Notes: generated by a model not told the origin, from the sequence alone. A stretch of DNA of 27,868 bases from a virus (IMGVR_UViG_3300030294_000757:1-27868); one strand, 5' to 3'; shown: positions 1-27,868, numbered from the stretch's first letter. A program made the numbers and translations.

Positions 1-300
1 TCTAAGAAAATCAAAGTTCATCTTATCAAGAACTACTCTTTCTTCTATATTAATAGGAAATGCATATATTTTAAATGTGAAATGAGATGGTTCTATATGA
101 TCAAAATACTTATAGTATATAATGTTATCTATTTTGCAATTGTTTACTAGATATTCTGAGTCTTGCAATAAAAATTCTATATCATCATCATCATAAATGG
201 AATATCTTTTGTAATAAACTTTAATCTGTACGTTAATATCTTCATTAATATCTTCATTAATATCTTCATTATTATGTTCATTAAATTTGTTGATCCTCAT
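1..300 (-). CDS. Family A protein, C-terminus beyond window
   Basis: The ATG lies at 300 and the frame stays open to base 1, so the visible 100 residues are the N-terminal part. It starts with the leader form MRINKFNEH, then three perfect NEDI tetrapeptides (residues 11-22), VYYKRY (28-33) and KIDNIIYYK (56-64), which are the two tyrosine motifs of family A. The gene follows 302-637 with one base between that stop and this start. The function is unknown. The NEDI insertion between leader and body is not seen in the other members. Confidence 0.8.
   Translation of the reverse strand, partial: MRINKFNEHNNEDINEDINEDINVQIKVYYKRYSIYDDDDIEFLLQDSEYLVNNCKIDNIIYYKYFDHIEPSHFTFKIYAFPINIEERVVLDKMNFDFLR
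233..268 (-). repeat. Three perfect 12-bp tandem repeats
   Basis: The unit TTAATATCTTCA (plus strand) occurs three times in a row, with a degenerate fourth copy after it. It is in frame and encodes NEDI three times, just after the leader of the partial gene at 1-300. It is a likely site of slippage and length variation. Confidence 0.85.
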
Positions 301-301
301 A

Positions 302-637
302 TTATATGTTATATTTTTGTGCTTGAATTTCAATTTTTAATTCTTCTTTTGTTAAAAATCTGCCATCTTTAATGTCTTTTACTTTTCTTTCTGTATCATA
401 AACTTGAGATAAATTATAACCATTAGGAATATATAACCCCATTAAATTACCAGGTATTCTAGCAAATATTCCTACAATAAATGAATTATTAGTTATTAAT
501 ATATCATATTTTATTTTCAGATTATCAAATTTATTTAAATCTTTAATTATATCATCTATCGAATTATATTTTTCTCCATATAATTTATTATATATGAAAA
601 TATTTTCAACAGTATCATTAAATTTTAGTATTTTCAT
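302..637 (-). CDS. Family A small protein of unknown function
   Basis: 111 aa. Leader MKILKFNDT, IYNKLY at 15-20, IKYDILI at 42-48, and a variant tail KYNI with Tyr for Phe. The start is fixed by the leader and by a one-base gap after the preceding stop. It is the second-to-last visible member of a run of family A genes. No known domain is recognised; the alternating hydrophobic and polar segments suggest a small alpha/beta fold. The bracketing motifs suggest the same fate as its neighbours, but the function is unknown. Confidence 0.8.
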   Translation of the reverse strand: MKILKFNDTVENIFIYNKLYGEKYNSIDDIIKDLNKFDNLKIKYDILITNNSFIVGIFARIPGNLMGLYIPNGYNLSQVYDTERKVKDIKDGRFLTKEELKIEIQAQKYNI

Positions 638-638
638 T

Positions 639-992
639 TTATAAGTTAAATTTTCGTGCTTGTATTGTTGGTATAATATCTTCTTTCTTTATTAAATTTG
701 AACTTCTACCTTTTCTTTTTTCTTCATATTCAGATTCATTATCATAAATATCAGATGACTCAAAATCAATTGGTAGATTTTCTAATAAGAATTTTCCATC
801 TAATTGAGCATATACTCCTAAGTAAATGTCTTTTTTATTTAATATGTATATATCATATTTTATGTTCTGTTTGTCTAATTTTTTCAAATCATTAAATACA
901 TCATCTATCTTATGATATTTTCCTTCTCCACTATATAACTTATAATATATGTGAATTCTTTCGTTATTTTCATTGAATTTTAGTACTTTCAT
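639..992 (-). CDS. Family A small protein of unknown function
   Basis: The frame is open up to an ATG at 1016, but the leader MKVLKFNEN begins at 992, one base after the preceding stop, so the shorter 117-aa product is preferred. Motifs are IHIYYKLY (13-20), NIKYDIYI (43-50), a charged KRKGR stretch near 93 and IKKEDI (101-106), ending in tail KFNL. It resembles 302-637 across its length (IY.KLY, D(V/I)..DL, IKYDI), so the two are probably tandem duplicates. Function unknown. Confidence 0.82.
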   Translation of the reverse strand: MKVLKFNENNERIHIYYKLYSGEGKYHKIDDVFNDLKKLDKQNIKYDIYILNKKDIYLGVYAQLDGKFLLENLPIDFESSDIYDNESEYEEKRKGRSSNLIKKEDIIPTIQARKFNL

Positions 993-993
993 G

Positions 994-1359
994 TTATATG
1001 TTAAATTTATTTGCATTTAAAATTATTGGTATATCTTCTATTCTAATGATCTTATAACCAGCTCCTAAATACTCTTCTTCTATGTCTTCTTTACTTTTTG
1101 CTGATGATGAAATATATTCATATTTTAATATATTTCTTAAATGACAATCAGGATATATAAATATAAAAAAAACTCCAACTATGTGATTATAAAGAAAGCT
1201 ATAATCTACTTCATTCTTAGTTAATTCAACTAAGCAATTTAATAACACATTATATACATCATCAGTCTCAATATTAAATAACATATAATATATCTTATTT
1301 GGCTCATAAGTATTGTCTTCTGTATAAACAGAATTTTCATTAAATCTTTTTATATTCAT
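994..1359 (-). CDS. Family A small protein of unknown function
   Basis: 121 aa. Leader MNIKRFNEN, an extended acidic/Asn linker, NKIYYMLF (21-28), NEVDYSFLYN (about 49-58), a strongly hydrophobic VGVFFIFIY strand just after it, and a C-terminal GYKIIRIEDIPIIL segment leading to tail KFNI. That last segment parallels GYTQIKRDDL in the gene at 5892, so the C-terminal third is a family trait. No signal peptide or clear membrane helix. Function unknown. Confidence 0.8.
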   Translation of the reverse strand: MNIKRFNENSVYTEDNTYEPNKIYYMLFNIETDDVYNVLLNCLVELTKNEVDYSFLYNHIVGVFFIFIYPDCHLRNILKYEYISSSAKSKEDIEEEYLGAGYKIIRIEDIPIILNANKFNI

Positions 1360-1360
1360 A

Positions 1361-1717
1361 TTAAATATTAAATTTGCTTGATTGAATTAATAATTCAATG
1401 TCATCTTTTTTTATAATTCTATTTCCTATGCGTAATCTTGTTTCTATTATACCTTCTTTAGTTTCATTTTTGCTTATCATGAAATTTGGAATTGTAGAGT
1501 CCAGTTCATAATTTGTAAACGCGTATATTCTGAAGTAATTGAAATTTTTATTAAAATAAAAAATCACGTAATCTATTTTATATCTTTCTAATGATAATAT
1601 ATCAGAAGTTAAGTCCTCTAATTCATTTTCAATAATATCATCAGGATTATCATTATACATATTATAATATGTATTTACTTTATTTTTATTTTCATTAAAT
1701 TGTATATATGTTTTCAT
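1361..1717 (-). CDS. Family A small protein; leader closest to T4 capsid-targeting form
   Basis: 118 aa. Its N-terminus MKTYIQFNEN is the closest in the window to the T4 internal-protein targeting sequence MKTYQEFIAE as I recall it: both have M-K-T-Y, a Phe at position 7 and a Glu at 9 or 10. Family motifs follow: NTYYNMY (15-21), YKIDYVIFYF (46-55), IIKKDDIELLI near the end, and tail KFNI. The ATG abuts the preceding TAA. Packaging into the head is an inference; the molecular function is unknown. Confidence 0.8.
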   Translation of the reverse strand: MKTYIQFNENKNKVNTYYNMYNDNPDDIIENELEDLTSDILSLERYKIDYVIFYFNKNFNYFRIYAFTNYELDSTIPNFMISKNETKEGIIETRLRIGNRIIKKDDIELLIQSSKFNI

Positions 1718-2035
1718 TTATAAGTTGAATTTTATTGCGTTTAATATAGTTTCTAAATAAATTTTATTCTCACTATAGTATAAAATTTCTTCTCTATTGA
1801 TCATGAATGAATTTTTATACTTTATAAGTGTCTCATCTGTTATTTCTTTAATGTCTGGTATATTATCGTATTTTACTATGTATTCATACATCCCTCCGTT
1901 ATCTATTTTTGTTAATACTCCAATATTATTTCTTGTGAATTCATTTATTTTAATATTTGAATGATATTCACATATTATATAATCACCTACTTTTATATCG
2001 TCAATTATATTTTCATATTTTTTTATATGCTTCAT
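1718..2035 (-). CDS. Family B SH3-like small protein
   Basis: 105 aa. Leader MKHIKKYEN, then VGDYIIC (16-22), NNIGVL (36-41), YIVKYDNIP (52-60), REEILYYSENK and an amphipathic end with tail KFNL. The spacing of these beta-strand-like motifs recurs in about 18 genes here and looks like a small SH3/KOW-type barrel; this is an inference from pattern, not a database match. It is inserted among family A genes. Function unknown. Confidence 0.8.
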   Translation of the reverse strand: MKHIKKYENIIDDIKVGDYIICEYHSNIKINEFTRNNIGVLTKIDNGGMYEYIVKYDNIPDIKEITDETLIKYKNSFMINREEILYYSENKIYLETILNAIKFNL

Positions 2036-2434
2036 TTATAAGTTGAATTTTTTCGCTCTCATTAAAAATATTATTTCATCCTTAGTTATTTTTAACCAAT
2101 CCACATTTTTACGTAATTCTATGACTTTTTCCTTTGATAAATATCCAGAAAAATATGAATTGTCTATGAATTTTGATATTCTTATTTTTTCTCTATCATC
2201 AGGAAAGAAATTAATTCTTATAAATGAACCATTTGTCATGTCTTGATAATATATTACATAATCTATATTTGAATCTTCCAGTATTTTTATTTTCTCTATG
2301 ACTTTGATTAATAATTTTTCATCATCAAATATAGAATTTGATACTATCATAGTGTCAGAATGATAAGAACGTGGTTTAAATTTAGATTCATTAGATGATT
2401 CATTAAATGATAGATAAGAATTTATGTTATTCAT
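2036..2434 (-). CDS. Family A protein, first gene of a transcription unit
   Basis: 132 aa. The leader is stretched (MNNINSYLSFNES, with a second NES just after), followed by SNIDYVIYYQD near 56-65, a region matching the DNSSF segment of the gene at 5892, WLKITKDEIIFLM and tail KFNL. It is the first gene after the terminator at 2466-2501, so a promoter is expected at 2435-2465; only the AT-rich TATATAG (minus strand, 2440-2446) stands out there. Function unknown. Confidence 0.78.
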   Translation of the reverse strand: MNNINSYLSFNESSNESKFKPRSYHSDTMIVSNSIFDDEKLLIKVIEKIKILEDSNIDYVIYYQDMTNGSFIRINFFPDDREKIRISKFIDNSYFSGYLSKEKVIELRKNVDWLKITKDEIIFLMRAKKFNL

Positions 2435-2465
2435 ATGATCTATATATTTAATTTACAATTCATAA

Positions 2466-2893: not shown

Positions 2894-2899
2894 AAATTA

Positions 2900-3302: not shown

Positions 3303-3402
3303 TCTATTAATTCATATAATCCCTAATATTAATGTATAATATTATAATTTATTAACCTTAATTCATATTTATTTTTACCTTTCTTAAAATTATATATAGC
3401 AT

Positions 3403-3645
3403 ATGAAACATTTAAAACAATTTGAAAATAAAAAAGAATTTGAAGTTGGAAATTATGTTCAAATAAATTATACAATAGGTAAAATTGTTGGAAGAATAAT
3501 AGAAATTGACGGTAATGATGCAATTCTTGATACAATTAATGGAATGAGAATTGTATTCTCATTCATTAACTATTTAGAAATAGCAAATAATAAACAAATA
3601 GAAATTTTTATAATGGAGAAAAATGCAAAAAAATTTAACTTATGA
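3403..3645 (+). CDS. Short family B SH3-like protein
   Basis: 80 aa, the smallest family B member. Leader MKHLKQFEN, VGNYVQI (15-21), then an IVGRIIEIDGNDAILD strand pair, and tail KFNL. The YxVxYDNIP block typical of the family is replaced by MRIVFSFINYLEI, so this may be a minimal barrel. It opens a four-gene plus-strand unit. Its TGA stop overlaps the next ATG (ATGA), implying coupled translation. TATATAG ends three bases before its ATG. Confidence 0.8.
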   Translation: MKHLKQFENKKEFEVGNYVQINYTIGKIVGRIIEIDGNDAILDTINGMRIVFSFINYLEIANNKQIEIFIMEKNAKKFNL

Positions 3646-3974
3646 AACATTTAAAAATATATGAAGGTTATAATATGCCAGAAATAGGAGATTATGTCAT
3701 ATGTGATATAACTCCTGGACAATATGATGAATTTAGAGAACTTAAAGATTTTCTTATTGTTAATATAGGATTAATAATTTATGCTCCTAAATATTCAGAT
3801 GAGTATGACTATGTTATAAGTTTTGATAATTTACCTAAAAATCTTGATTCTATGTTTGGCTCTAATACAAAAAATGGAAGAGGATTGAAATTCTCAATCG
3901 ATGAGATTAAACATTTTAGTAAAGATAAGGAAAAAATGAAGATTATACTATCATCAAATAAATTTAATATTTAA
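3642..3974 (+). CDS. Family B SH3-like small protein
   Basis: 110 aa. Leader MKHLKIYEG, EIGDYVICD (14-22), VNIGLII, YVISFDNLP, a C-terminal EIKHFSKDKEKMKIIL segment and tail KFNI. The start overlaps the previous stop by four bases, and one base separates its own stop from the next ATG. The C-terminal block (E-I-x-x-[FYW]-S-K-D-K-E) is the family's second hallmark and recurs with WS or YS in most members. Function unknown. Confidence 0.82.
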   Translation: MKHLKIYEGYNMPEIGDYVICDITPGQYDEFRELKDFLIVNIGLIIYAPKYSDEYDYVISFDNLPKNLDSMFGSNTKNGRGLKFSIDEIKHFSKDKEKMKIILSSNKFNI

Positions 3975-3975: not shown

Positions 3976-4602
3976 ATGAAATACATTAAAAAATTTGAAA
4001 GTTCAATTAAAAAAATGATTTTGATTGGCGAAAATTTGACTGAGTTGCCTGAATTACCAGATACTCTTATGAAATTGCAATGTTCTGATAATAAATTGAC
4101 ATCATTATCTAATTTACCTAATACATTAAATGAAATATATTGTAACAATAATATGATAATTGAAATTTCTAAATTACCAGAATTTTTAACTGATTTTGCT
4201 TGCTCATATAATAAATTAAAAAAATTGCCAAATTTGCCTAATACATTAAAAGAACTTTTTTGCTGTGATAATAAACTAACAGAATTACCTATTCTGCCAG
4301 ATAACTTAAGAATTCTTAGCTGTGATAATAATAATTTAAATGAATTACCGATTTTACCAAAAAAATTAACATTATTATCTTGCTCTGGAAACAATTTAGA
4401 GAAATTGCCTGAATTACCAGATGGCTTATTGGATTTATATTGTTATAATAATAATTTAAAAGAATTACCTATATTACCAATTACATTGAAATCGTTGGCT
4501 TGTTCTGGTAATAATTTACCATATACTAATTTAAAAGAATATGATGAGTGGTTAGAAATAAATCATCCTGATATTTTTATGACTAGAAAATTTAACATAT
4601 AA
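3976..4602 (+). CDS. Leucine-rich repeat protein, 8 repeats
   Basis: 208 aa. Leader MKYIKKFES and a short N-cap are followed from residue 24 by eight uninterrupted 20-residue LRRs of the form LPxLPxxLxxLxCxxNxLxx. A C-cap (NLKEYDEWLEINHPD) leads into tail ARKFNI-like TRKFNI. The repeat is of the short LPxLP bacterial class seen in IpaH/YopM-type proteins. Cys or Ala replaces the usual core Leu at repeat position 13. No catalytic domain is attached, so a binding role is most likely; the partner is unknown. Confidence 0.92.
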   Translation: MKYIKKFESSIKKMILIGENLTELPELPDTLMKLQCSDNKLTSLSNLPNTLNEIYCNNNMIIEISKLPEFLTDFACSYNKLKKLPNLPNTLKELFCCDNKLTELPILPDNLRILSCDNNNLNELPILPKKLTLLSCSGNNLEKLPELPDGLLDLYCYNNNLKELPILPITLKSLACSGNNLPYTNLKEYDEWLEINHPDIFMTRKFNI

Positions 4603-4603
4603 T

Positions 4604-5170
4604 ATGAAATACATTAAAAAATTTGAAAATTCAAATATAGAATTGAATGATAATCATAAAAATTTAACTATATTGCATAAATTACCAAGAAATTTAGTAA
4701 AATTGGAATGCTCAGATAATAAATTGATTAATTTACCTACGTTACCAAAAACATTAGAATATTTAGATTGTTCTGGTAATAAATTAATTAAATTGCCTGA
4801 TATACCAGATTCCTGTAAAAAATTGTATTGTTATAATAATAAATTAACTAAGTTGCCTAAATTGTCACAGAATTTAAAAATTATATCTTGCGCAGACAAT
4901 AAATTAACAGAATTATCAGAGTTACCTGAATCATTAGATAAATTATATTGTGGTGAAAATAAATTGACAACTTTACCTAATTTACCAAGCAAATTAACTG
5001 TATTGTCTTGTAGATTTAATAAATTAACTGAGTTGCCTATTTTACCAGAAACAATAACAACATTGTATTGTGAAGGAAATGATTTAGGATATTCTGATTT
5101 GGATGGTTATTATGATTGGCTGGAAATTAATCATCCTGAAGTAGTTGATGCAAGTAAATTCAATATATAA
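4604..5170 (+). CDS. Leucine-rich repeat protein, 7 repeats
   Basis: 188 aa. Leader MKYIKKFEN, seven 20-residue repeats, a C-cap (DLDGYYDWLEINHPEV) and tail SKFNI. The third repeat (PDIPDSCKKLYC) departs most from consensus. One base separates it from the previous LRR gene, and it ends the plus-strand unit, meeting the minus-strand gene 5174 head to head; the two coding tails together form an inverted repeat. It keeps the tail although no gene follows in the same direction, so the tail is not only a start-site for the next gene. Confidence 0.92.
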   Translation: MKYIKKFENSNIELNDNHKNLTILHKLPRNLVKLECSDNKLINLPTLPKTLEYLDCSGNKLIKLPDIPDSCKKLYCYNNKLTKLPKLSQNLKIISCADNKLTELSELPESLDKLYCGENKLTTLPNLPSKLTVLSCRFNKLTELPILPETITTLYCEGNDLGYSDLDGYYDWLEINHPEVVDASKFNI

Positions 5171-5188
5171 AAATTATAAATTGAATTT
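5156..5188. terminator. Inverted repeat formed by two convergent KFN tails
   Basis: The arms 5156-5170 and 5174-5188 pair over 15 bp with one mismatch and a 3-base loop. The arms are the last codons of the convergent genes on either strand. There is no T-run on either side, so it is a weak terminator at best and may instead protect 3' ends. Confidence 0.45.
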
Positions 5189-5569
5189 GTCTGCTGTTAA
5201 TATCATTTCTAATTCTTCAATTGTTTTACCAAATGCTTTTATATTTGTTTCATTTAGATGAATAACCTTATTTTTTTTAGAACCTAAATTAAAATAATCC
5301 CTAATTATATCTGGAATATTTTCATATTCAAAATAATTTGATATTTCAGGATGTTTGTTTGATATGTCATATGATACATAATATGTTCTTAAAGTCTTTC
5401 CGTTTACTACTACTTTTCCTCCATAATTTCTTATTCTACCAATATTATTAGTTAAAAAGTCATAAATATCTCCTCCTAAATTGTAATTACTATTATCATA
5501 TTCAAAAATAATATAATCATTTATTTTTGGCTCATTATTTGTGTTTTCATTGAATCTTTCTATTTTCAT
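5174..5569 (-). CDS. Family B SH3-like protein, long form
   Basis: The frame is open to 5635, but the leader MKIERFNEN starts at 5569, giving 131 aa, and the upstream part overlaps the previous gene. Motifs: KINDYIIFEYD (15-25), NNIGRI, a two-part YYVSYD ... FEYENIPDIIRDYF block with an insertion of about 15 residues, EELEMIL and tail KFNL. It is the last gene of a minus-strand run reaching back past 10 kb. Function unknown. Confidence 0.8.
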   Translation of the reverse strand: MKIERFNENTNNEPKINDYIIFEYDNSNYNLGGDIYDFLTNNIGRIRNYGGKVVVNGKTLRTYYVSYDISNKHPEISNYFEYENIPDIIRDYFNLGSKKNKVIHLNETNIKAFGKTIEELEMILTADKFNL

Positions 5570-5571
5570 TA

Positions 5572-5889
5572 TTATATGTTGAATTTTCTGGATTGTAAAA
5601 TAGTTTCTAAATCTTCTATGTTGTCTGACCAACATAATATTTCTTTCCTTGAAAAAGTAGTTGTACCTTTATTGAAATATTTTTCTGTATCTTCTGGTAT
5701 GTTTTCATATTGAACTACAAATGGATATTTATCTCCTCTATTAAATTCTATGCAAATACCAATATGACTATTAACAAAAGTTCTAGATTTAAATGCTCCA
5801 ACGTAATCATTAGATAAAATGTATTCTCCTACCATTGGAAAGTCTTTTTTATCAGACATTAATTTTTCAAACTCCTTTATATACTTCAT
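5572..5889 (-). CDS. Family B SH3-like small protein
   Basis: 105 aa. It has the MKYIKEFEK leader, which is more typical of LRR genes, joined to a family B body: MVGEYILSND (19-28), SHIGICI, FVVQYENIP, SRKEILCWSDN and LETIL, then tail SRKFNI. The mixed leader type suggests leaders have been exchanged between families. The stop is two bases from the next start. Function unknown. Confidence 0.82.
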   Translation of the reverse strand: MKYIKEFEKLMSDKKDFPMVGEYILSNDYVGAFKSRTFVNSHIGICIEFNRGDKYPFVVQYENIPEDTEKYFNKGTTTFSRKEILCWSDNIEDLETILQSRKFNI

Positions 5890-5891
5890 TG

Positions 5892-6236
5892 TTATAAGTT
5901 GAATTTATTTGTTTTTACTATATATTTTATCTTCTCCAAATCATCTCTTTTTATTTGAGTATATCCATTATTAGGTAGATTATTTTTTATGTCTTCTATG
6001 CTTGCAAATGATGAATTATCAAAATATCCTACTAATAAATCTATTTTTGGCGTTCTTTTAAAATATATGAAAATTTCATATGTATTATCATGAGAATATA
6101 TATAATGTTTTATTCTATTTTTTTCTAAATCATTTAAATCACGTATTAAAACTAACTCATCCTCTTTGCTATCTAAATTATAATTTTGGTAGTAGATATC
6201 AAATTCCCTACCTTCATTGAATCTTTCAATTTTCAT
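5892..6236 (-). CDS. Family A small protein of unknown function
   Basis: 114 aa. Leader MKIERFNEG, FDIYYQNY (12-19), NRIKHYIYSHD (40-50), a FIYFKR strand, DNSSF (73-77), GYTQIKRDDLEKI (91-103) and tail NKFNL. The GYTQIKR block recurs as GYIQIKR in the gene at 25567, which otherwise looks different. Its ATG shares one base with the preceding TAA (TAATG). Function unknown. Confidence 0.82.
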   Translation of the reverse strand: MKIERFNEGREFDIYYQNYNLDSKEDELVLIRDLNDLEKNRIKHYIYSHDNTYEIFIYFKRTPKIDLLVGYFDNSSFASIEDIKNNLPNNGYTQIKRDDLEKIKYIVKTNKFNL

Positions 6237-6592
6237 TATAATGTATTATTATTTTCACTATTTCTTATTGATTCTAATTCATTTTTATTGTCCCCCCAAT
6301 ATCTAATCTCACCGTTGAATGCATAAATTTCCTTGATATCATTATCAGATTCATAGTCACCATAAACATCATCAATATAGCTGTAATTTATAGTATAAAG
6401 AACTTCATATTTTTTAATAGAATTATTGTTACCTCTATTTATTTTTTTATTTTGGTCGTCAATATTTGTTATTAATCCAATAGAATCATTTATATTCTTT
6501 TTGTCATGACGGTTATTTACATTTAGTAATACATAATTGCCTATCTCAGGCTCTCCATTGTTCAAACTCTCATTAAATCTTTTAACTCTCAT
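6236..6592 (-). CDS. Family B SH3-like protein with lost tail
   Basis: 118 aa. Leader MRVKRFNES, EIGNYVLLNVN (20-30), DSIGLI, a long Asn/Lys-rich insertion, YEVLYTINYSYIDDVY in place of YDNIP, EIRYWGDNKNELESI, and then NSENNNTL at the end. The expected KFN tail is missing and replaced by an Asn-rich octapeptide, the only case among the family B genes. This suggests decay of the tail after a recent mutation. Function unknown. Confidence 0.78.
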   Translation of the reverse strand: MRVKRFNESLNNGEPEIGNYVLLNVNNRHDKKNINDSIGLITNIDDQNKKINRGNNNSIKKYEVLYTINYSYIDDVYGDYESDNDIKEIYAFNGEIRYWGDNKNELESIRNSENNNTL

Positions 6593-6594
6593 TA

Positions 6595-6936
6595 TTATAT
6601 GTTATATTTTTTAGAAACTAAGATAATTTCCAATTTAGATTTATCCTTAGAAGAATATTTTATTTCTTCTCTTAAAAATCTGATAGCTGATTCATATTTA
6701 TTGTCCAAGTAGCCAACATGTAATGATTCAGGTATGTTATCATATTGTACAACATATTTATCATCCCTACTTTTTTCTCCATTTATGTCTATTACTTTTC
6801 CAATATTATTATTTACAAGAATATTAAAGTCATCAAATTTATAATTTTCTGGATCATATTCATTGCATATTACATAATCACCAATTTCAATTTTTTTCTT
6901 ATTTATATTACTTTCATTGAATCTAATTATCTTCAT
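6595..6936 (-). CDS. Family B SH3-like small protein
   Basis: 113 aa. Leader MKIIRFNES, a KKK-containing linker, EIGDYVICNEYD (20-31), NNIGKVIDING, YVVQYDNIPESLHVGYLD, REEIKYSSKDKSKLEIIL and the variant tail KYNI. It shares leader, core and the LH(V/I) segment after YDNIP with the next gene downstream (6939-7271 is its upstream neighbour in transcription), pointing to a tandem duplication. Function unknown. Confidence 0.82.
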   Translation of the reverse strand: MKIIRFNESNINKKKIEIGDYVICNEYDPENYKFDDFNILVNNNIGKVIDINGEKSRDDKYVVQYDNIPESLHVGYLDNKYESAIRFLREEIKYSSKDKSKLEIILVSKKYNI

Positions 6937-6938: not shown

Positions 6939-7271
6939 TTATATATTAAATTTATTTGATTTTAGAATTAATTCTAATTCTTTTTTATCTTGAGTCCAAT
7001 ATTTTATTTCAGTGCGCTTCATTCTTACTGTATTATCACTATTGAAAAAAATATGTAAATTATGTGGAATATCATAAAATCTAATAGCATACGGATGAGT
7101 TGGATATTTATCATAATCATTCTTTACATACATACCAATAGATGACATCATAAAATTATCAATGTCACTAAAATCATTTATAGTACTATCATGATTGTCA
7201 TTGCATATTACATAATCACCAATTTCTGGGTTTCCTTCATTTAAACTCTCATTAAATCTTATTATCTTCAT
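6939..7271 (-). CDS. Family B SH3-like small protein
   Basis: 110 aa. Leader MKIIRFNES, LNEGNPEIGDYVICND (10-25), SSIGMYV, YAIRFYDIPHNLHIFF, RTEIKYWTQDKKELELIL, tail NKFNI. This is close to the family consensus and a useful reference member. It overlaps the neighbouring start by one base and leaves a two-base gap to the next gene. Function unknown. Confidence 0.83.
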   Translation of the reverse strand: MKIIRFNESLNEGNPEIGDYVICNDNHDSTINDFSDIDNFMMSSIGMYVKNDYDKYPTHPYAIRFYDIPHNLHIFFNSDNTVRMKRTEIKYWTQDKKELELILKSNKFNI

Positions 7272-7645
7272 TATATGTTAAATTTATTTGATATTGTTGA
7301 TAGATAAATTGATTCTATATCTTCTTTATTTACTTTTTCAAAATCTGTGTTATTGAACCAATGTCTAACTTCTCCTAAATCTTTACGATCAGTCACATGT
7401 TTAAAATTGTGAGTATTGGCAAAATCATAGAATGTGTTAATTGAGTCGTTTATATATGAATATAATATAAAATTCCAACTTGAATCTACTCCTTCTTTAT
7501 AATATATATCATATAATAAAAATCCAGATTTTATTAAGTCTCTAATATCATCATTTAATATTTCAACTCCAATGTCATCACATTTATAAGTTTTTAGATA
7601 TAATTTGAAATTGTTGATGCTTTCATTAAATCTATTAATCTTCAT
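7271..7645 (-). CDS. Family A small protein of unknown function
   Basis: 124 aa. Leader MKINRFNES, FKLYLKTY (13-20), an acidic DDIRDLIKSG helix, FLLYDIYYKEG (42-52), ILYSYIND, a central His/Phe-rich stretch (NTHNFKHV), WFNNTDFEKVNKEDIESIY and tail SNKFNI. The distance between the two tyrosine motifs matches the family. Trp and His content is higher than in other members, but I see no recognisable metal or catalytic site. Confidence 0.8.
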   Translation of the reverse strand: MKINRFNESINNFKLYLKTYKCDDIGVEILNDDIRDLIKSGFLLYDIYYKEGVDSSWNFILYSYINDSINTFYDFANTHNFKHVTDRKDLGEVRHWFNNTDFEKVNKEDIESIYLSTISNKFNI

Positions 7646-7647: not shown

Positions 7648-8010
7648 TTATAAGTTAAATTTTTTAGTTATTAAATTAAGTTCTAATTCTTCTTTGTTTT
7701 TAGAATAATCTAATATTAAACTATCTCCAAATAAACACAAATTGTTAACAATTGGTTTAATTTCAATATCAGGATCATTATGAAATCTATTTAATATATC
7801 ATCAGGTATGTTATCATATTTAACTTTAATATCATGACTATAACGATAAATATAATATATTTGACCTACATTATTATTTATAAAATTTATAAATTTTTTA
7901 TCATCATCATCAGATGATGATCTTAACATTTTATTCGCATTTATTAAAACATAATCATCTTCACTAGGTTCATCATATTGTAGGCTATCATTAAATCTAT
8001 TAATCTTCAT
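7648..8010 (-). CDS. Family B SH3-like small protein
   Basis: 120 aa. Leader MKINRFNDS, DDYVLINAN (18-26) with Asp replacing the usual Gly, a run of Ser and Asp (SSSDDDDKK, 31-39), NNVGQIYYI, IKVKYDNIPDDIL, LILDYSKNKEELELNL and tail KKFNL. The acidic run is an insertion relative to relatives. Function unknown. Confidence 0.82.
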   Translation of the reverse strand: MKINRFNDSLQYDEPSEDDYVLINANKMLRSSSDDDDKKFINFINNNVGQIYYIYRYSHDIKVKYDNIPDDILNRFHNDPDIEIKPIVNNLCLFGDSLILDYSKNKEELELNLITKKFNL

Positions 8011-10884: not shown

Positions 10885-10931
10885 ATTATTATATATTTAT
10901 TTTAAAATACCATAATATTTAACACTATTAT

Positions 10932-12396: not shown

Positions 12397-12433
12397 TATA
12401 AATGTTCAACATGAAAAATTAATATATAACTAC

Positions 12434-17143: not shown

Positions 17144-17187
17144 GTGAGTATATATTATATTTCAATTGTCAAATCCTTATATTGAAA

Positions 17188-21030: not shown

Positions 21031-21036
21031 TTAAAA

Positions 21037-21064: not shown

Positions 21065-21070
21065 AGTTTA

Positions 21071-23560: not shown

Positions 23561-24247
23561 TTAAATATTAAATTTGCTCATATCACCAACCTCAGGCTGA
23601 TTCTCACTCATCCATTTTTTATAACCATCTAAATCATCATAAGGCAAATTATTACCATCACAATCTAAATATAATAATGATGAAGGTAATATAGGTAATG
23701 TTTTTAAATTGTTGTTAGAACATTTTAAATCCTTTAAGCCCTCAGATAAATAAGGTAAGGATGATAACTCATTGTTCTTGCAATCTAATATTTTTAATCC
23801 ATCAGGTAAAGTAGGCAATGAAGTTAAAAAATTATCAAAACAATGTAACTCTATTAATCCATCAGGTAAAGTAGGTAATGAAATCAATTTATTGTCCCTA
23901 CAATATATCTCCCTTATATTCTTAGGTAAATTAGGTAATGAATATATTTCATTATTAGAACAATCTAAATATATTAATCTATCAGGTAAAGTAGGTAATG
24001 ATGTTAAATGATTTTTTGAACAACATAACTCTAATAATCTGTCAGGTAACTCTGGTAATGAATCTAATAAATTACCCCTACAATCTAAATCTTCTAATGT
24101 ACTTGGTAACTTAGGTAACTCTGTTAATATGTTATATTTACATGATAAATTTGTTAATCCTTCTTGTAAATCTGGTAACTTACCTAATTTTTTTATATCA
24201 CAAATTAACGTTTGTTCAATACCCTCAAACTTCTTTATATATTTCAT
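23561..24247 (-). CDS. Leucine-rich repeat protein, 9 repeats
   Basis: The frame is open to 24277, but the leader MKYIKKFEG starts at 24247, forming an ATGA overlap with the GNAT gene, so 228 aa is preferred. Nine 20-residue repeats; several carry LPTLPDGL and are nearly identical. C-cap DLDGYKKWMSENQPEV and tail SKFNI. The N-cap (LICDIKKLGKLPDL) keeps a Cys at the core position. A strong terminator follows. Confidence 0.92.
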   Translation of the reverse strand: MKYIKKFEGIEQTLICDIKKLGKLPDLQEGLTNLSCKYNILTELPKLPSTLEDLDCRGNLLDSLPELPDRLLELCCSKNHLTSLPTLPDRLIYLDCSNNEIYSLPNLPKNIREIYCRDNKLISLPTLPDGLIELHCFDNFLTSLPTLPDGLKILDCKNNELSSLPYLSEGLKDLKCSNNNLKTLPILPSSLLYLDCDGNNLPYDDLDGYKKWMSENQPEVGDMSKFNI

Positions 24248-24657
24248 GATTTTAGTTTTTTTATTAAGATGAAACATGAATCCTTATCAGTATCATCTTT
24301 ATTCATTTTATCAGAATCTTGAAACACTTTGAACCCACAACCTAAATATAATTTTACAGCACCTTCATTATTTTTAAATACAAGTAATGTGATAATATCA
24401 ATACCAAGATCATCTTTAATATAATCAAACATCTGATTTAGTAAGTATTTAGCATACCCTTTTCTCTTAAATCTATTAACAGTCCTTAAATTAAATATTG
24501 TAATATACTCGTCCTTAAACCATTTATCTGGTTTTTCTATCCTATATTCAGTCTCAGATACTAATATATCATCTAAAAATAACTGAAATTTATTATTAGT
24601 CTTGTCAATTATAAAGGTTTTTTCTTCTTTCTTCTCATAACTTTTTATATACTTCAT
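24244..24657 (-). CDS. GNAT-family N-acetyltransferase with leader
   Basis: 137 aa. After the leader MKYIKSYEK, it shows the GNAT fold: motif A with the acetyl-CoA pyrophosphate loop R-K-G-Y-A (65-69) and the following helix (KYLLNQMFDYIKD), a beta strand (DIITLLVF) and motif B (NNEGAVKLYLGCGFKVF, about 96-112). The substrate is unknown. Phage GNATs can modify host proteins or small molecules, and a packaged enzyme would act at once on entry. It lacks the KFN tail (ends KKLKS) and its TGA overlaps the ATG of the LRR gene. Confidence 0.87.
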   Translation of the reverse strand: MKYIKSYEKKEEKTFIIDKTNNKFQLFLDDILVSETEYRIEKPDKWFKDEYITIFNLRTVNRFKRKGYAKYLLNQMFDYIKDDLGIDIITLLVFKNNEGAVKLYLGCGFKVFQDSDKMNKDDTDKDSCFILIKKLKS

Positions 24658-24659: not shown

Positions 24660-25061
24660 TTATATGTTAAATTTATTTACATCAATAAACATCTGATATC
24701 CTTTTGTGTCAAATGATAAATCATCTGGTAGATTATCTAAATTTATTATATGTAATATACTATTATTAATAAGACTACTAGAAAGATTTTTTGATTCATG
24801 ATATATATTAGACTCAATATAATCAAATAATCCTGGATATCTATAAATAAATTCAGGAGTAGCAAATATTCTACCATCTTTATCAACTTGATTTATCTTA
24901 AATATTGTCTGATTACGGTCATTACACATATTTATATCATTATAAGGCAAACTTTGAATATTAATATAATCTCCATCCTTTTTAATCAATTCTAAAAAAT
25001 CATGTAATCTATTAAAAAAAATATTCTGAGACATTGTTTCAAATTTCTTTATATACTTCAT
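24660..25061 (-). CDS. Unknown protein with leader and KFN tail
   Basis: 133 aa. Leader MKYIKKFET, then a sequence unlike families A, B or C: NRLHDFLELIKKDGDY (about 17-32), FATPEFIYRYPGLFDYIES (about 66-84), ILHIINLDNLPDDL and tail NKFNI. Aromatic-rich and probably globular. It lies between an LRR gene and the GNAT gene in the same unit, with gaps of two bases. I recognise no domain. Confidence 0.75.
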   Translation of the reverse strand: MKYIKKFETMSQNIFFNRLHDFLELIKKDGDYINIQSLPYNDINMCNDRNQTIFKINQVDKDGRIFATPEFIYRYPGLFDYIESNIYHESKNLSSSLINNSILHIINLDNLPDDLSFDTKGYQMFIDVNKFNI

Positions 25062-25063: not shown

Positions 25064-25564
25064 TTATATGTTAAATTTATTTGCAGAATACTTCTCTGGA
25101 AATTCTTTAAAATCCTTATAACCATCTAAGTTATTATAAGGTAAATTATTACCATAACAATATAACCTCTCTAATGAATCAGGTAACTCTGGTAATTCAG
25201 ATATATTATTGCTCTCACAATCTAAATATTTTAATGTATTAGGTAATTTAGGCAATGATGTTAATTCATTACTTGTACAAAACAATTCCTCTAATGTATC
25301 AGGTAACTCAGGCAACTCACTTATTTTATTATAACAACAATCTAAGCCAATTAATTTAGTAGGTATCTCTGGTAATTTCGTTAATTTATTACTAGAACAA
25401 TTTAAATTTTTTAATGTAACAGGTAACTTTGGTAACGTAGTTAAATCATTACCAAGACAATTTAAATTTAATAATGTACTAGGCAACTTCGGTAACTTAC
25501 TCAATCCTTTTTGAAAACAATTTAATGTTGTTACTATGCCCTCAAACTCCTTTATATACTTCAT
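25064..25564 (-). CDS. Leucine-rich repeat protein, 6 repeats
   Basis: 166 aa. Leader MKYIKEFEG, N-cap (TLNCFQKGLSK), six regular 20-residue repeats each with the core Cys, a short C-cap of the FKEFPEKY type and tail ANKFNI. The first nine residues plus IV are the same as in the next upstream gene (25567), although that gene is not an LRR protein, which indicates exchange of the leader region. Confidence 0.92.
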   Translation of the reverse strand: MKYIKEFEGIVTTLNCFQKGLSKLPKLPSTLLNLNCLGNDLTTLPKLPVTLKNLNCSSNKLTKLPEIPTKLIGLDCCYNKISELPELPDTLEELFCTSNELTSLPKLPNTLKYLDCESNNISELPELPDSLERLYCYGNNLPYNNLDGYKDFKEFPEKYSANKFNI

Positions 25565-25566: not shown

Positions 25567-25884
25567 TTAAATATTAAATTTTGTTGCACAAACTGATAAC
25601 ATATATTTATTTTTCTCCTCATCTGTAGCATCTTTTGTTATTTTATTTATATTAGACCTTTTGATTTGTATGTAACCATCACTTAACGTATTGAAATTAA
25701 CATCTTTTGATTTTATCTCATATGTATCACCAATATAATTACAAAAATAATCATAAAATTCATAATTTAAAGAATTAGTCTTAGATAACCTTAATTTACC
25801 TATCGCTCTGAAATCTTTATAATTATAACTAAATATATCATCAAATGATTTTACTATACCCTCAAACTCCTTTATATACTTCAT
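25567..25884 (-). CDS. Unknown protein, C-terminus like family A
   Basis: 105 aa. Leader MKYIKEFEGIV is the same as in the LRR gene downstream. The middle (FDDIFSYNYKDFRAIGKLRL, then YEFYDYFCNYIGDTYEI) is Tyr/Phe-rich and unrecognised. The segment DGYIQIKRSNINKI parallels GYTQIKRDDLEKI of the family A gene at 5892, and the tail is TKFNI. It looks like a chimera: LRR-type leader, unique centre, family A end. Function unknown. Confidence 0.76.
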   Translation of the reverse strand: MKYIKEFEGIVKSFDDIFSYNYKDFRAIGKLRLSKTNSLNYEFYDYFCNYIGDTYEIKSKDVNFNTLSDGYIQIKRSNINKITKDATDEEKNKYMLSVCATKFNI

Positions 25885-25886
25885 GA

Positions 25887-26474
25887 TTAAATATTAAATT
25901 TTCTTGATTGAAAAATATCAGGCTGATTTATCTCTAACCATTCATTATATTCTTTCAAATTTTTATATGGTAAATTATTACCGCCACAATCTAAATATTC
26001 TAATGTATAATGCAATAATGGTAACTCACTTAAATTGTTATCATGACAATCCAATTCTTTTAATGATAATGGTAATATAGGTAGAGAAGTTAAATTATTT
26101 TTATAACAACTTAATTTTATTAATGTACTTGGTAATTTAGGTAACTCAGTCAATTCGTTTTTATAACAATTAAATTTTATTAATGTATCAGGTAATTCAG
26201 GTAACTCAGTTAATTTATTATTACTACAAAATAATACTTCTAATCCATCAGGTAAAGTTGGTAAAGAGTATAATAAATTTTTACCACAATATAACTCTTT
26301 TAATGTATCAGGCAACTCTGTAAACTCACTTATCTTATTTCCACTACAATACAATTTCTCTAATGTATCTGACAACTCAGGTAACTCTGTTATGCCTTCT
26401 CCAAAACTTGTATTAGTTAATTTTAAGATATTGTCTTCGTTCTCTATATGTTCAAACTTTTTTATATACTTCAT
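25887..26474 (-). CDS. Leucine-rich repeat protein, 7 repeats
   Basis: 195 aa. Leader MKYIKKFEH followed by a longer acidic N-cap (IENEDNILKLTNTSFGEG), seven 20-residue repeats (two irregular: FTELP and LPLLHYTL), C-cap NLKEYNEWLEINQPD and tail SRKFNI. The N-cap lacks the usual Cys segment of its relatives. The C-cap is closest to that of the plus-strand gene 3976, more than 20 kb away. Confidence 0.92.
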   Translation of the reverse strand: MKYIKKFEHIENEDNILKLTNTSFGEGITELPELSDTLEKLYCSGNKISEFTELPDTLKELYCGKNLLYSLPTLPDGLEVLFCSNNKLTELPELPDTLIKFNCYKNELTELPKLPSTLIKLSCYKNNLTSLPILPLSLKELDCHDNNLSELPLLHYTLEYLDCGGNNLPYKNLKEYNEWLEINQPDIFQSRKFNI

Positions 26475-26476
26475 TG

Positions 26477-26995
26477 CTATATGTTAAATTTATTTGCTCC
26501 ACCAATCTCAGGATGATTTTCTTCTAACCACTTCTTATATCCAATTAAATCATTATAAGGTAAATTGTTCCTTGAACATGTTAATGTTCGTAATGTATTA
26601 GGTAATAAAGGCAACTCACTCAAATTGTTATCCTGACAATATAACTCCTTTAATCCATCAGGTAAAATAGGTAACTCACTTAATTTATTATCAGCACACG
26701 ATAATATAAATAATGTATCAGGTAACTTTGGTAACTCAATTAATTCATTTTCATAACAATATAATATCTCTAATCCATCAGGTAGATTTGGTAATCTCTC
26801 TAATCTGTTCCTTGTACAATCTAAATATCTTAATGTATCAGGTAACTTAGGTAATGTATGTAAATTGTTAAGAGAACAACGTAACTTCTCTAATGTATCA
26901 GGTAAATTAGTTAAATCATTAATATTTTCATCATTACAATCTAAATCTGTAACAATACTCTCAAATTTCTTATTAAATCTCTTTATATACTTCAT
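26477..26995 (-). CDS. Leucine-rich repeat protein, 6 repeats, doubled leader
   Basis: 172 aa. The N-terminus MKYIKRFNKKFES reads as two leader endings in series: KRFN of the family A/B type, then KKFES of the LRR type. N-cap (DLDCNDENIND), six 20-residue repeats, C-cap IGYKKWLEENHPEI and tail NKFNI. The doubled leader is direct evidence for recombination or slippage within this motif. Confidence 0.92.
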   Translation of the reverse strand: MKYIKRFNKKFESIVTDLDCNDENINDLTNLPDTLEKLRCSLNNLHTLPKLPDTLRYLDCTRNRLERLPNLPDGLEILYCYENELIELPKLPDTLFILSCADNKLSELPILPDGLKELYCQDNNLSELPLLPNTLRTLTCSRNNLPYNDLIGYKKWLEENHPEIGGANKFNI

Positions 26996-26997
26996 AG

Positions 26998-27447
26998 TTA
27001 TATGTTAAATTTATTAGCTGCATACTTCTCTGGAAATTCTTTCCAATCATTATAACTATCCAAATCATAATATGGAAAATCATTTCCTCCACAATCTAAA
27101 TTCTCTAATGATGCAGGCAAATCAGGTAATGAATTTAACTTATTATTAGAACAATCTAATATCCTTAATCCTTCAGGTAACTTTGGTAAATATTTTAATT
27201 TGTTGTTGTAACAATATAATATCTCTAATGTATTAGGTAACTTCGGCAATGACATTAAATAATTACTGTTGCAATATAATGTCTTCAAATTGATAGGCAA
27301 CTCAGGTAATTCATTTAAATAATTATCATTACAATATAATGTAACCAATCCATTAGGTAACTCAGTTAACTCTGTTAAATAAGATTTAGAATAATCTAAT
27401 GACATTATTAATATCTTCTCAAACCTCTTTATATACTTCATAATCAT
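26998..27447 (-). CDS. Leucine-rich repeat protein, 5 repeats
   Basis: The leader MKYIKRFEK begins at 27441; an ATG two codons earlier (27447) overlaps the previous TGA as ATGA, so either start is possible. About 147-149 aa: N-cap (SLDYSKSYLTE), five 20-residue repeats, C-cap of the DWKEFPEKY type and tail ANKFNI. The C-cap matches that of the gene at 25064. Confidence 0.9.
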   Translation of the reverse strand: MIMKYIKRFEKILIMSLDYSKSYLTELTELPNGLVTLYCNDNYLNELPELPINLKTLYCNSNYLMSLPKLPNTLEILYCYNNKLKYLPKLPEGLRILDCSNNKLNSLPDLPASLENLDCGGNDFPYYDLDSYNDWKEFPEKYAANKFNI

Positions 27448-27868
27448 ATGTTAAATTTTTTAGCCATTCCCTGAGGAGTTTTAGAATACCAAAATTTATA
27501 TCCATCTAAATCCTCATAAGGCAAATTGTTACCAGCACAATGTAATATACTTAAATTTTCAGGCAACTCAGGCAACTCACTTAATTTATTGTTAGAACAA
27601 TATAACATTTTCAATGTATTAGGCAACTTAGGTAATGAAGTTAATTCATTATTAGTACAATATAATTCTTTTAATTCACTAGGCAACTCAGGCAACTCAC
27701 TTAAATAATTAAAATTGCAAACTATATTTTCTAATGTATCAGGCAACTCAGGTAACTCACTTAATTTGTTACGATGACAACGCAATGTTATCAAATTATC
27801 AGGCAACTTAGGTAATTTTGTTAACTGTTGATCAGAACATTCAAAATCTGTAACTCTACTCTCAAACC
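27444..27868 (-). CDS. Leucine-rich repeat protein, N-terminus beyond window
   Basis: The frame is open to the window edge; the first visible residues FESRVTDFECSDQQLTK fit the end of an MKYIKKFES leader and an N-cap, so only about six residues are missing. Five 20-residue repeats, then a C-cap of the SKTPQGM type and tail KKFNI. A start at an internal TTG (27806) would cut off the N-cap and is rejected. Its C-cap DNA is nearly identical to that of 14878-15627. Confidence 0.9.
   Translation of the reverse strand, partial: FESRVTDFECSDQQLTKLPKLPDNLITLRCHRNKLSELPELPDTLENIVCNFNYLSELPELPSELKELYCTNNELTSLPKLPNTLKMLYCSNNKLSELPELPENLSILHCAGNNLPYEDLDGYKFWYSKTPQGMAKKFNI

What the first reader, a model, noticed from the sequence alone, without database searches (positions are those of the whole stretch)
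1..27868. One leader and one tail bracket four or more unrelated protein folds
About 45 genes begin with MKx[IL][KR][KR][FY][NE] or a recognisable variant, and almost all of these end in K[FY]N[ILMV], yet the interiors are unrelated: SH3-like (family B), IYY proteins (family A), LRR, ankyrin, and unknowns; the GNAT has the leader only. This looks like a cassette system in which a common address and a common end are fitted to exchangeable modules. I know of no described system with both ends fixed like this.
Basis: partly seen in the sequence, partly recalled or inferred. Interest (0 to 1): 0.9.

Follow-up and report, generated by a model that had tools for sequence, protein, structure and literature searches.

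The report
Phage proteins tagged at both ends
A giant bacteria-infecting virus carries well over a hundred small, mostly unrelated proteins that start with the same short tag and end with the same four-letter tag, perhaps because they are loaded into the virus particle; the start tag has a known counterpart in phage T4, while no counterpart of the end tag was found.

Summary
In detail: 42 of 54 window ORFs end in [KR][FY]N[ILMV] (0.03 expected), and by eye about 37 of the 41 with a readable start carry the MKxx(K/R)x[FY](N)E leader. The window belongs to a huge phage (contigs G001 and G003) with 139 tailed ORFs; a relative, G002, has 102. The 241 tailed proteins fall into about 65 interior families, with LRR, ankyrin, SH3-like and ferredoxin-like folds. 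A huge phage of the same GC has 0 of 640.

The leader resembles T4's capsid targeting sequence (IPII/IPIII: MKTYQEFIAEA), and relatives carry it beside a gp21-type protease and gp23-type capsid protein. The tail is held as a peptide, is not a long DNA cassette, and is lineage-specific. The same phage has a second, mutually exclusive C-terminal motif, [IY]RKxKLxK[LI], on 129 mostly leaderless ORFs in 61 families (G002 included). Tail operons more often have a TATATA element upstream (37 of 50; untagged operons 126 of 326), but it is not confined to virion genes.

Packaging, leader cleavage and the tail's partner are inferred. One leader on unrelated interiors is known from T4; the C-terminal tags are the new part.

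The parts
1..300 (-). leader MRINKFNE; C-terminus outside the window
302..637 (-). leader MKILKFND + tail QKYNI, family A
639..992 (-). leader MKVLKFNE + tail RKFNL, family A; AlphaFold model m96dbfed6638b (ferredoxin/PII-like arrangement, residues 1-8 pLDDT <50)
994..1359 (-). leader MNIKRFNE + tail NKFNI, family A
1361..1717 (-). leader MKTYIQFNE + tail SKFNI, family A (compare T4 MKTYQEFIAEA)
1718..2035 (-). leader MKHIKKYE + tail IKFNL, family B
2036..2434 (-). leader MNNINSYLSFNE + tail KKFNL, family A
2441..2446 (-). TATATA element 6 nt before the first gene of the operon
3391..3398 (+). TATATATA element 4 nt before the ATG
3403..3645 (+). leader MKHLKQFE + tail KKFNL
3642..3974 (+). leader MKHLKIYE + tail NKFNI, family B
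3976..4602 (+). leader MKYIKKFE + tail RKFNI, LRR
4604..5170 (+). leader MKYIKKFE + tail SKFNI, LRR (Pfam LRR_4 E 1.4e-18)
5174..5569 (-). leader MKIERFNE + tail DKFNL, family B
5572..5889 (-). leader MKYIKEFE + tail RKFNI, family B
5892..6236 (-). leader MKIERFNE + tail NKFNL, family A
6236..6592 (-). leader MRVKRFNE, no tail (ends NNNTL)
6595..6936 (-). leader MKIIRFNE + tail KKYNI, family B
6939..7271 (-). leader MKIIRFNE + tail NKFNI, family B; AlphaFold model m0e90b349b697 (SH3/PsaE-like barrel, matches span 13-95; first ten residues mean pLDDT 58; tail at the end of a C-terminal helix)
7271..7645 (-). leader MKINRFNE + tail NKFNI, family A
7648..8010 (-). leader MKINRFND + tail KKFNL, family B
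8013..8390 (-). degenerate leader MIIKKNTDN + tail NKFNL, family A
8393..8686 (-). leader MNHIKTFE + tail NKFNL, family B-like
8683..9021 (-). leader MITDFNSFE + tail KKFNI, family B
9018..9350 (-). leader MNIKRFNE + tail NKFNV, family B
9353..9763 (-). leader MKNIKTYE + tail RKFNI, family A
9760..10224 (-). leader MKYLKTFE + tail YKFNI, ankyrin (Pfam Ank E 4.5e-10)
10221..10553 (-). leader MKILKFNE + tail NKFNM, family B
10555..10884 (-). leader MKVRKFNE + tail KKFNI, family B
10890..10895 (-). TATATA element 5 nt before the operon's first gene
12423..12428 (+). TATATA element 5 nt before the ATG
12434..12748 (+). leader MKYIKQYE + tail NKFNL, family B
13160..13495 (-). degenerate leader MKKLKLIE + tail KKFNL, family B-like
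13492..13797 (-). degenerate leader MKDKEIKSE + tail KKFNI, family B
13794..14156 (-). leader MKINNFND + tail KKFNI, family B
14250..14876 (-). leader MKYIKKFE + tail RKFNL, LRR
14878..15627 (-). leader MKYIKKFE + tail KKFNI, LRR
15629..16315 (-). degenerate leader MKYINKYYT + tail RKFNI, LRR
16323..16697 (-). leader MKHIKIFE + tail KKFNI, LRR
16694..17143 (-). leader MKYIKMFE + tail NKFNI, LRR
17149..17154 (-). TATATA element 5 nt before the LRR operon
23561..24247 (-). leader MKYIKKFE + tail SKFNI, LRR
24244..24657 (-). leader MKYIKSYE only, GNAT (Pfam Acetyltransf_1 E 2.6e-8)
24660..25061 (-). leader MKYIKKFE + tail NKFNI
25064..25564 (-). leader MKYIKEFE + tail NKFNI, LRR
25567..25884 (-). 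leader MKYIKEFE + tail TKFNI
25887..26474 (-). leader MKYIKKFE + tail RKFNI, LRR
26477..26995 (-). leader MKYIKRFNKKFE + tail NKFNI, LRR
26998..27441 (-). leader MKYIKRFE + tail NKFNI, LRR
27444..27806 (-). tail KKFNI, LRR; N-terminus outside the window

Best explanation
The tagged genes encode a large, fast-changing set of accessory proteins of a huge phage with a T4-like head, made late and loaded into the head. The N-terminal leader works like the T4 capsid targeting sequence: a flexible 8-12 residue peptide that binds the prohead core and is probably clipped after its glutamate by a gp21-type protease. The C-terminal [AST]xK[FY]N[IL] tail is a second short recognition motif, read with its free carboxyl end by a shared partner of this phage lineage. 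It marks the leader class of proteins off from a second, mostly leaderless class that ends in RKxKLxK[LI]. Shown here: the shared ends, the different folds, peptide-level conservation, the separability of leader and tail, and the two exclusive tail classes. Inferred: lateness (from a shared upstream element), packaging, cleavage and the tail's partner.
For: Leader: T4 IPII and IPIII start MKTYQEFIAEA; tailed family A members start MKTYQQFNEM, MKTFNQFYES and MKTYIQFNEN. The named relatives carry the leader: W03 part 83 of 514 ORFs against 20.4 in shuffles, W02 137 of 956 against 42.0, W01 67 of 640 against 35.6, W04 part 97 of 547 against 23.8. W01 encodes a gp21-type prohead protease (Peptidase_S77 E 6.3e-11, over cut-off), a T4-type portal and a gp23-type capsid protein side by side; W02's protease is at E 6.7e-5, under cut-off. 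In W03 two leader proteins stand directly before the portal gene (221232, 222007). Both models give the leader low confidence, unlike the core. Upstream TATATA: 38 of 51 tail operons against 129 of 369 others (p 1.6e-7); with the contig overlap removed 37 of 50 against 126 of 326 untagged and 8 of 29 RKxKL operons. It lies upstream of W01 capsid, portal and protease genes, W02 portal and protease, and 10 of 11 fibre-like genes of G001. Tail: 65 clusters. Among 65 ortholog pairs tail identity is 0.896 against 0.689 inside, while synonymous change is not reduced (0.253 against 0.207). 212 of 241 KFN ORFs have the leader, against 11 of 129 RKxKL ORFs and 85 of 786 others.
Against: No virion proteomics exist for these phages, so packaging is not shown. 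No convincing capsid protein or prohead protease was found in G001, G002 or G003 (0 of 10 records for PF03420; weak G002 matches for the capsid protein, E 0.002 and 0.0012). They are fragments, but the key partners are unseen in the window's own phage. The form MKYIKKFE has lysine at P3, unlike the LxE/IxE sites of T4 (recalled). T4 internal proteins have no such tail. 139 packaged species would far exceed the roughly 50 head proteins of SPN3US (PMC7411985 abstract). The TATATA element is not confined to virion genes: the DNA polymerase, PhoH, gp46-like and one topoisomerase gene of G002 and the topoisomerase of W02 have it, while the W02 capsid gene does not. A leader-conservation test between G and W orthologs is carried by LRR proteins. 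That a second C-terminal tag sits on mostly leaderless proteins shows such tags need not mean packaging. Tail codons are biased at Asn and Ile in a way that peptide selection alone does not explain.
Confidence: 0.42

Rival explanations
1. The ends address the proteins inside the infected cell (replication factory, membrane or another hub) rather than into the virion; KFN and RKxKL are docking motifs for two such hubs.
For: Two exclusive C-terminal motif classes exist in one phage, the second mostly without leader. In LR756501 DPYGEExW sits on proteins with and without leader, some apparently membrane proteins by eye, and between domains. The set is far larger than known internal-protein sets.
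Against: The leader resembles the T4 capsid targeting peptides and occurs beside portal and capsid genes of relatives; 212 of 241 KFN ORFs carry it.
Confidence: 0.27
2. The C-terminal tag loads proteins into a phage-encoded vault: the window's phage encodes a full-length major vault protein homologue, and the tag is its cargo address.
For: An 819-aa ORF (G001 7965-10424, G003 4569-7028) matches Pfam MVP_shoulder at E 9.2e-28, Vault_3 and Band_7. MVP_shoulder is over cut-off in 8 of 11 records: G001, G003, two further KFN contigs, W01, a W01-like contig, W02 and a DPYGEE contig; it is absent from W03 and W04, whose examined parts lack KFN, NADDFG and DPYGEE tags as recurrent ends.
Against: Few independent lineages; W03 and W04 are probably close relatives (inference). 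G002 has the KFN tail and no match, though its contig ends before the syntenic place. W03 and W04 have an RxxKL-type end instead. The vault gene lies among RKxKL genes, not KFN genes. No interaction was tested.
Confidence: 0.1
3. The ends are gene-border signals at the RNA or DNA level (promoter, translation start/stop context, recombination microhomology) and the shared peptides are by-products.
For: Tail codons depart from genome usage: Asn AAC 75 of 139 against 12%, Ile ATA 73 of 80 against 48%. TTTAACATATAA resembles the upstream TTAATATATA element. Junctions repeat nearly the same 30-33 nt.
Against: 47 tail genes called without a close downstream gene, a few of them mis-assigned, keep tail and codon bias alike. 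Phe codons are near genome usage, Phe/Tyr and Ile/Leu/Val/Met interchange, and A/S/T at -6 uses different first bases. Asn wobble differs in 29 of 65 ortholog pairs.
Confidence: 0.1
4. The tail protects against or tunes proteolysis by the host (a C-terminal stability tag), unrelated to the leader.
For: It is strictly C-terminal with a hydrophobic last residue and a small residue at -6.
Against: 212 of 241 tailed ORFs also carry the leader, against 85 of 786 untagged ones, so the two are not independent; of 181 G genes with a match in W01-W03, 161 have no tail.
Confidence: 0.07
5. All tagged genes descend from one ancestor and the interiors simply diverged; only the ends are kept.
For: LRR and SH3-like paralogs are clearly expanded families; the largest single-linkage cluster holds 92 of 241.
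Against: LRR, ankyrin, SH3-like and ferredoxin-like folds do not derive from one another by drift, and the GNAT carries the leader alone.
Confidence: 0.04

Closest known systems
T4 internal proteins IPI, IPII, IPIII and Alt with the capsid targeting sequence (CTS)
   Same: One short N-terminal leader on otherwise diverse accessory head proteins; IPII and IPIII begin MKTYQEFIAEA; PMC3012670 describes diverse internal proteins with only the CTS in common (passage read).
   Different: No shared C-terminal tail of this kind in T4 (0 of 234 ORFs of the 150 kb examined); a handful of proteins, not more than a hundred; packaging is proven in T4 and only inferred here.
Ejection/inner head proteins of giant phages phiKZ, SPN3US and 201phi2-1
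   Same: Sets of head-packaged proteins, several cut after glutamate by a prohead protease (PMC5694885, passages read).
   Different: Their propeptides are mostly long, not one shared 8-12 residue peptide, and not all are cut; no common C-terminal tag is mentioned in the passages read.
Huge phages LR756500 (W01), LR756501 (W02), LR756502 (W03), LR745206 (W04)
   Same: Leader; 181 ORFs of G001-G003 have a match in W01-W03. Taken to be phages of Al-Shayeb et al. 2020 from the lengths 735, 642 and 634 kb; that paper puts its genomes over 634 kb in the Mahaphage clade with predicted Bacteroidetes hosts (PMC7162821, passages read; accessions not seen there).
   Different: W01 has NADDFG-type ends on 11 of 691 ORFs, W02 DPYGEExW, W03 and W04 an RxxKL-type end; the KFN tail is on 0 to 3 ORFs of each.

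Membership tests
T4-type capsid targeting sequence proteins | short N-terminal MK leader with aromatic residue then glutamate | tested here: met
   window 36 of 54 ORFs by strict pattern against 4.8 in shuffles; T4 IPII and IPIII fetched and compared. The pattern alone is weak: 13 of 234 T4 ORFs against 9.0 in shuffles
T4-type capsid targeting sequence proteins | unrelated interiors behind one leader | tested here: met
   65 clusters; folds
T4-type capsid targeting sequence proteins | gp21-type prohead protease and gp23-type capsid protein in the same phage | tested here: inconclusive
   not found convincingly in the fragments G001-G003; protease over cut-off in W01, under cut-off in W02, homologous in W03; gp23 over cut-off in W01-W04
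T4-type capsid targeting sequence proteins | LxE/IxE cleavage site (recalled for T4) | tested here: inconclusive
   forms such as YEDFINEA fit; MKYIKKFE has K at P3; no cleavage data
T4-type capsid targeting sequence proteins | protein found inside the virion, leader removed | not testable with these tools
   no virion proteomics for an uncultured phage
T4-type capsid targeting sequence proteins | late expression | tested here: inconclusive
   TATATA upstream of 37 of 50 KFN operons against 126 of 326 untagged, but also of some replication genes; no expression data
Integron-like or DNA-cassette system | conserved DNA attachment or flanking sequence beyond the coding ends | tested here: not met
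   outside the end codons the remaining signal within genes lies in first and second codon positions (acidic and hydrophobic residues), none at wobble positions
Vault (major vault protein) cargo | a major vault protein in the same phage | tested here: met
   819-aa homologue, MVP_shoulder E 9.2e-28
Vault (major vault protein) cargo | binding of the tagged proteins to the vault | not testable with these tools
   no interaction data

The most novel reading that the evidence does not exclude
Huge T4-like phages sort their small proteins by C-terminal class tags read by dedicated partners: KFN[IL] on a leader-bearing payload of more than a hundred proteins, RKxKLxK[LI] on a second, mostly leaderless set, and NADDFG or DPYGEExW in other lineages. 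Any protein grafted between leader and tail joins a payload carried by a phage-built container, the head or the phage-encoded vault.
Probability: 0.3. Interest if true: 0.88.

Novelty: new variant of a known kind. Interest (0 to 1): 0.76.

Why it matters
If right, the roles of hundreds of unknown huge-phage genes could be sorted by their ends alone, the number of proteins a phage can deliver would be far above present figures, and the tags could be used to load chosen proteins. Even if the virion reading fails, one motif on 139 proteins and another on dozens more in one phage point to undescribed hubs that can be fished with tagged peptides.

Tried and rejected
Common descent of whole proteins: rejected because the folds differ. 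Tail as translation-initiation context of the next gene: rejected because genes called without a close downstream gene keep it with the same codon bias. Tail as a general C-terminal effect: rejected, since non-tail genes with Asn at -2 use AAT 139 to 17. Avoidance of the promoter sequence as the cause of AAC: not supported, since AAC to AAT is 70 to 49 before ATA and 46 to 44 before TTA. Tail as a sliding-clamp peptide: considered because NADDFG resembles the DnaE clamp motif (recalled); not supported for KFN, as the polymerase ORFs of G002 and W02 end otherwise. KFN ends in W03: 3 of 514, no relatives with the tail. PF03420 in 10 records and PF07068 in G001-G003 gave nothing useful. The KFN junction pattern was absent from genome contigs, so no host was found this way. 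Structure searches: family B Z up to 6.8, no Foldseek match at E 0.001; family A Z up to 6.1, the top rows at rmsd 6.8 and above. Leader test between G and W orthologs: 18 of 26 G leader proteins with a W match also have a leader there, but outside LRR only one pair passes; three more pairs were judged by eye. Families are single linkage, the largest merging LRR and SH3-like proteins, so 65 is approximate. In one search the 15-kb overlap of G001 and G003 counts twice; removes it. The RKxKL pattern was chosen after seeing the ends, so its expectation (0.5 against 70 in G003) is post hoc.

Mended on checking: an 819-aa protein that I had first taken for a tail sheath from its look is a major vault protein homologue; the promoter evidence is narrower than first written; the second tail class was found. 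I lowered the packaging reading from 0.50 to 0.42 for these reasons.

Literature: the only paper with the string DPYGEE is an unrelated yeast peptide paper (listing). Searches (listings and starts of abstracts) showed no C-terminal tag of this kind; most subscription papers are not in that library. For a phage-encoded major vault protein: 42 papers, 15 listed, none on it by title or start of abstract; the passages shown of PMC13174449 and PMC9605863 do not mention one. RaK2 (PMC3622015, passages) has a long shared N-terminal region in tail spikes, not this.

Full report
What the window is. The window is a 27,868-base IMG/VR virus record. It matches bases 19,866-47,737 of a 105-kb IMG/VR contig, G001, at 99.86%. 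G001 overlaps a 168-kb contig, G003, by 14,992 nt at 99.97%, so the two are most likely one phage of at least 258 kb; a 330-kb contig, G002, is a syntenic relative, its longest matching blocks 79-89% identical. Named relatives are LR756500 (W01), LR756501 (W02), LR756502 (W03) and LR745206 (W04), found with two proteins of G003 and G002. By length three of them fit the 735-, 642- and 634-kb genomes of Al-Shayeb et al., who place their genomes over 634 kb in the Mahaphage clade with predicted Bacteroidetes hosts (PMC7162821, passages read; the accessions were not seen there). A TATCTTTG element, the form of Bacteroidota -7 boxes (recalled), is enriched upstream of genes of G002 and G003, which fits such a host.

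In the window 42 of 54 ORFs of at least 60 aa end in [KR][FY]N[ILMV], 0.03 expected; the counts are 58 of 199 in G001, 81 of 385 in G003 and 102 of 555 in G002, each with less than 0.3 expected. Position -6 is A, S or T in 54 of 58, 67 of 81 and 84 of 102 of these tails, so the tail is better written [AST]-x-K-[FY]-N-[IL]. Controls: W01, same GC, 0 of 640; W02 0 of 956; T4 0 of 234; W03 part 3 of 514; W04 part 1 of 547.

Interiors. With 10 N-terminal and 7 C-terminal residues removed, the 241 tailed proteins give 65 clusters at E 1e-3, the largest (92) merging LRR and SH3-like proteins. Sixty-seven representatives align only at MKYIKxFE and KFNI. Pfam recognises ankyrin, LRR, an ExoX-like C-terminal domain and two weaker families in this set; PADLOC matched 3 of 67 at most. 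AlphaFold: family B, mean pLDDT 86, SH3/PsaE-like barrel, best Z 6.8 over 63 residues; family A, mean pLDDT 77, ferredoxin/PII-like, Z 5.9 over 72 residues for the best row with a sensible rmsd. These Z values are middling and show arrangement, not kinship. In both models the first eight to ten residues have low confidence and the tail lies at the end of a C-terminal helix.

Level of selection. Among 65 reciprocal best pairs of tailed proteins between G003 and G002, amino-acid identity is 0.786 in the leader, 0.689 inside and 0.896 in the tail, while the share of identical residues with a different codon is 0.175, 0.207 and 0.253: the tail is held as a peptide. With one representative per cluster, the signal beyond the end codons lies in first and second codon positions (acidic and hydrophobic residues around -44 to -31), not at wobble positions. 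One oddity remains. Tail Asn codons are AAC in 75 of 139 (G001 and G003) against 12% genome-wide, and Ile codons ATA in 73 of 80 against 48%. The bias is the same where no gene follows closely, and Asn wobble differs in 29 of 65 pairs, so it is not frozen ancestry. In W02 the DPYGEE Tyr codon is also shifted to the C-ending form (72 of 98 TAC, genome 36%). Accuracy selection could account for Asn and Tyr, not for ATA. It stays unexplained.

The leader. T4 IPII and IPIII begin MKTYQEFIAEA and IPI MKTFKEF. In T-even phages the internal proteins are diverse with only the capsid targeting sequence in common (PMC3012670, passage read), and the propeptide is cut by gp21 (PMC5694885, passages read). 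W01, W02 and W03 carry leaders of the form MKYIKEYEDFINEA, MI[TK]KFKLFE or MKTFNQFINEG, and MKHLKKFNES. In W01 and W02 portal, a protease related to T4 gp21 and a gp23-type capsid protein lie together; W03 has the same order, its protease similar to W01's at E 7.4e-91, with leader proteins just before the portal. The strict leader pattern hits 13 of 234 T4 ORFs against 9.0 in shuffles, among them IPII, IPIII and Alt, so it is weak evidence for any single protein; the case rests on numbers and context.

The TATATA element. It lies within 70 nt upstream of 38 of 51 tail operons and 129 of 369 others. With the contig overlap removed the counts are 37 of 50 KFN operons, 8 of 29 RKxKL operons and 126 of 326 untagged ones. 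It precedes the capsid, portal and protease genes of W01, the portal and protease of W02 and 10 of 11 fibre-like genes of G001, and is missing before HSP70, DNA polymerase and DHFR of W02. But it also precedes DNA polymerase, PhoH, a gp46-like gene and a topoisomerase gene of G002 and a topoisomerase of W02, and is missing before the W02 capsid gene. So it is suggestive of late expression, no more. In the window it ends 4-6 nt before the ATG at five tail operons and 15 nt before it at two fibre genes, which hints at nearly leaderless messages.

More than one C-terminal tag. In the same phage a second motif, about [IY]-R-K-x-K-L-x-K-[LI] within the last 22 residues, marks 70 of 408 ORFs of at least 50 aa in G003 (0.5 expected from internal stretches), and 50 of 585 in G002; none of these ORFs has the KFN tail. 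Over G001, G003 and G002 with the overlap removed there are 129 such ORFs in 61 clusters, one of 41 and 40 singletons. Leaders: 212 of 241 KFN ORFs, 11 of 129 RKxKL ORFs, 85 of 786 others; in G003 58 RKxKL ORFs lie below 67.9 kb and 12 above, while the first KFN ORF is at 67.9 kb. W03 and W04 have a related RxxKL end on 16 of 538 and 33 of 567 ORFs of the parts examined, W01 on 3, W02 on none. W01 has NADDFG-type ends on 11 of 691 ORFs, seven of which match LRR proteins of G001 that end in KFNI. W02 has DPYGEE in 89 of 1,014 ORFs; in ORFs of at least 60 aa there are 103 copies where 0.009 are expected: 37 at the C-terminus, 19 near the start, 47 inside. Leader and DPYGEE are associated (22 of 61 leader ORFs against 66 of 895 others, p 1.6e-9).

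A vault gene. Checking this report showed that an 819-aa protein of G001 and G003, which I had taken for a tail sheath, is a major vault protein homologue (MVP_shoulder E 9.2e-28); W01 and W02 have homologues of full length. MVP_shoulder is over cut-off in 8 of 11 records; W03, W04 and G002 lack it, G002's contig ending before the syntenic place. In this small, phylogenetically uneven sample the vault gene goes with the KFN, NADDFG and DPYGEE tags, which makes a vault a second candidate container for tagged proteins. Of the eight, the W01-like contig was not examined for tags.

Reading. The best account is a T4-style head-targeting leader on a greatly expanded payload, plus a C-terminal class tag whose partner is unknown. 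The leader half is a known kind; the C-terminal tags I have not seen described in the searches made. Packaging, cleavage and the tail's partner are inference; I put the packaging reading at 0.42, down from 0.50 before the checks above.

Noticed in passing
G001 7965-10424 (-), G003 4569-7028 (+); W01 20904-23387; W02 17179-19608: A full-length major vault protein homologue encoded by huge phages; outside the window.
   Followed up: partly
G003 1-67 kb mostly; G001, G002; also W03, W04: A second C-terminal motif, RKxKLxK[LI], on 129 ORFs in 61 clusters, exclusive with the KFN tail and mostly leaderless.
   Followed up: partly
LR756501 (W02, loci L096-L131); IMG/VR loci L252-L331: DPYGEExW occurs in 89 of 1,014 ORFs, at C-termini, behind leaders and repeated between domains; 94 stretches in IMG/VR carry it.
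   Followed up: partly
window tail codons; G001-G003: Asn and Ile codons of the tail are strongly biased (AAC, ATA), independent of a following gene; cause unknown.
   Followed up: partly
window 17224-23470: Three large fibre-like proteins with long IGSNF-type repeats; one tested has a T4 gp9/10-like N-terminus (a second shares its start), one has Fib_succ_major domains.
   Followed up: no
window 9760-10224 versus G001 29638: The ankyrin gene ends IYKFNI in the window but its counterpart in G001 was called with the end AKKNI, a difference at the tail between near-identical contigs.
   Followed up: no
window 2531-3271 and 10932-12325: Two small groups of similar-looking genes without leader or KFN tail lie inside the tagged gene field.
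   Followed up: no
G002 and G003 upstream regions: Two promoter-like elements are enriched: TATCTTTG and TATATATA.
   Followed up: partly
W01 tail NADDFG: Resembles the beta-clamp binding motif of bacterial DnaE (recalled); not tested.
   Followed up: no
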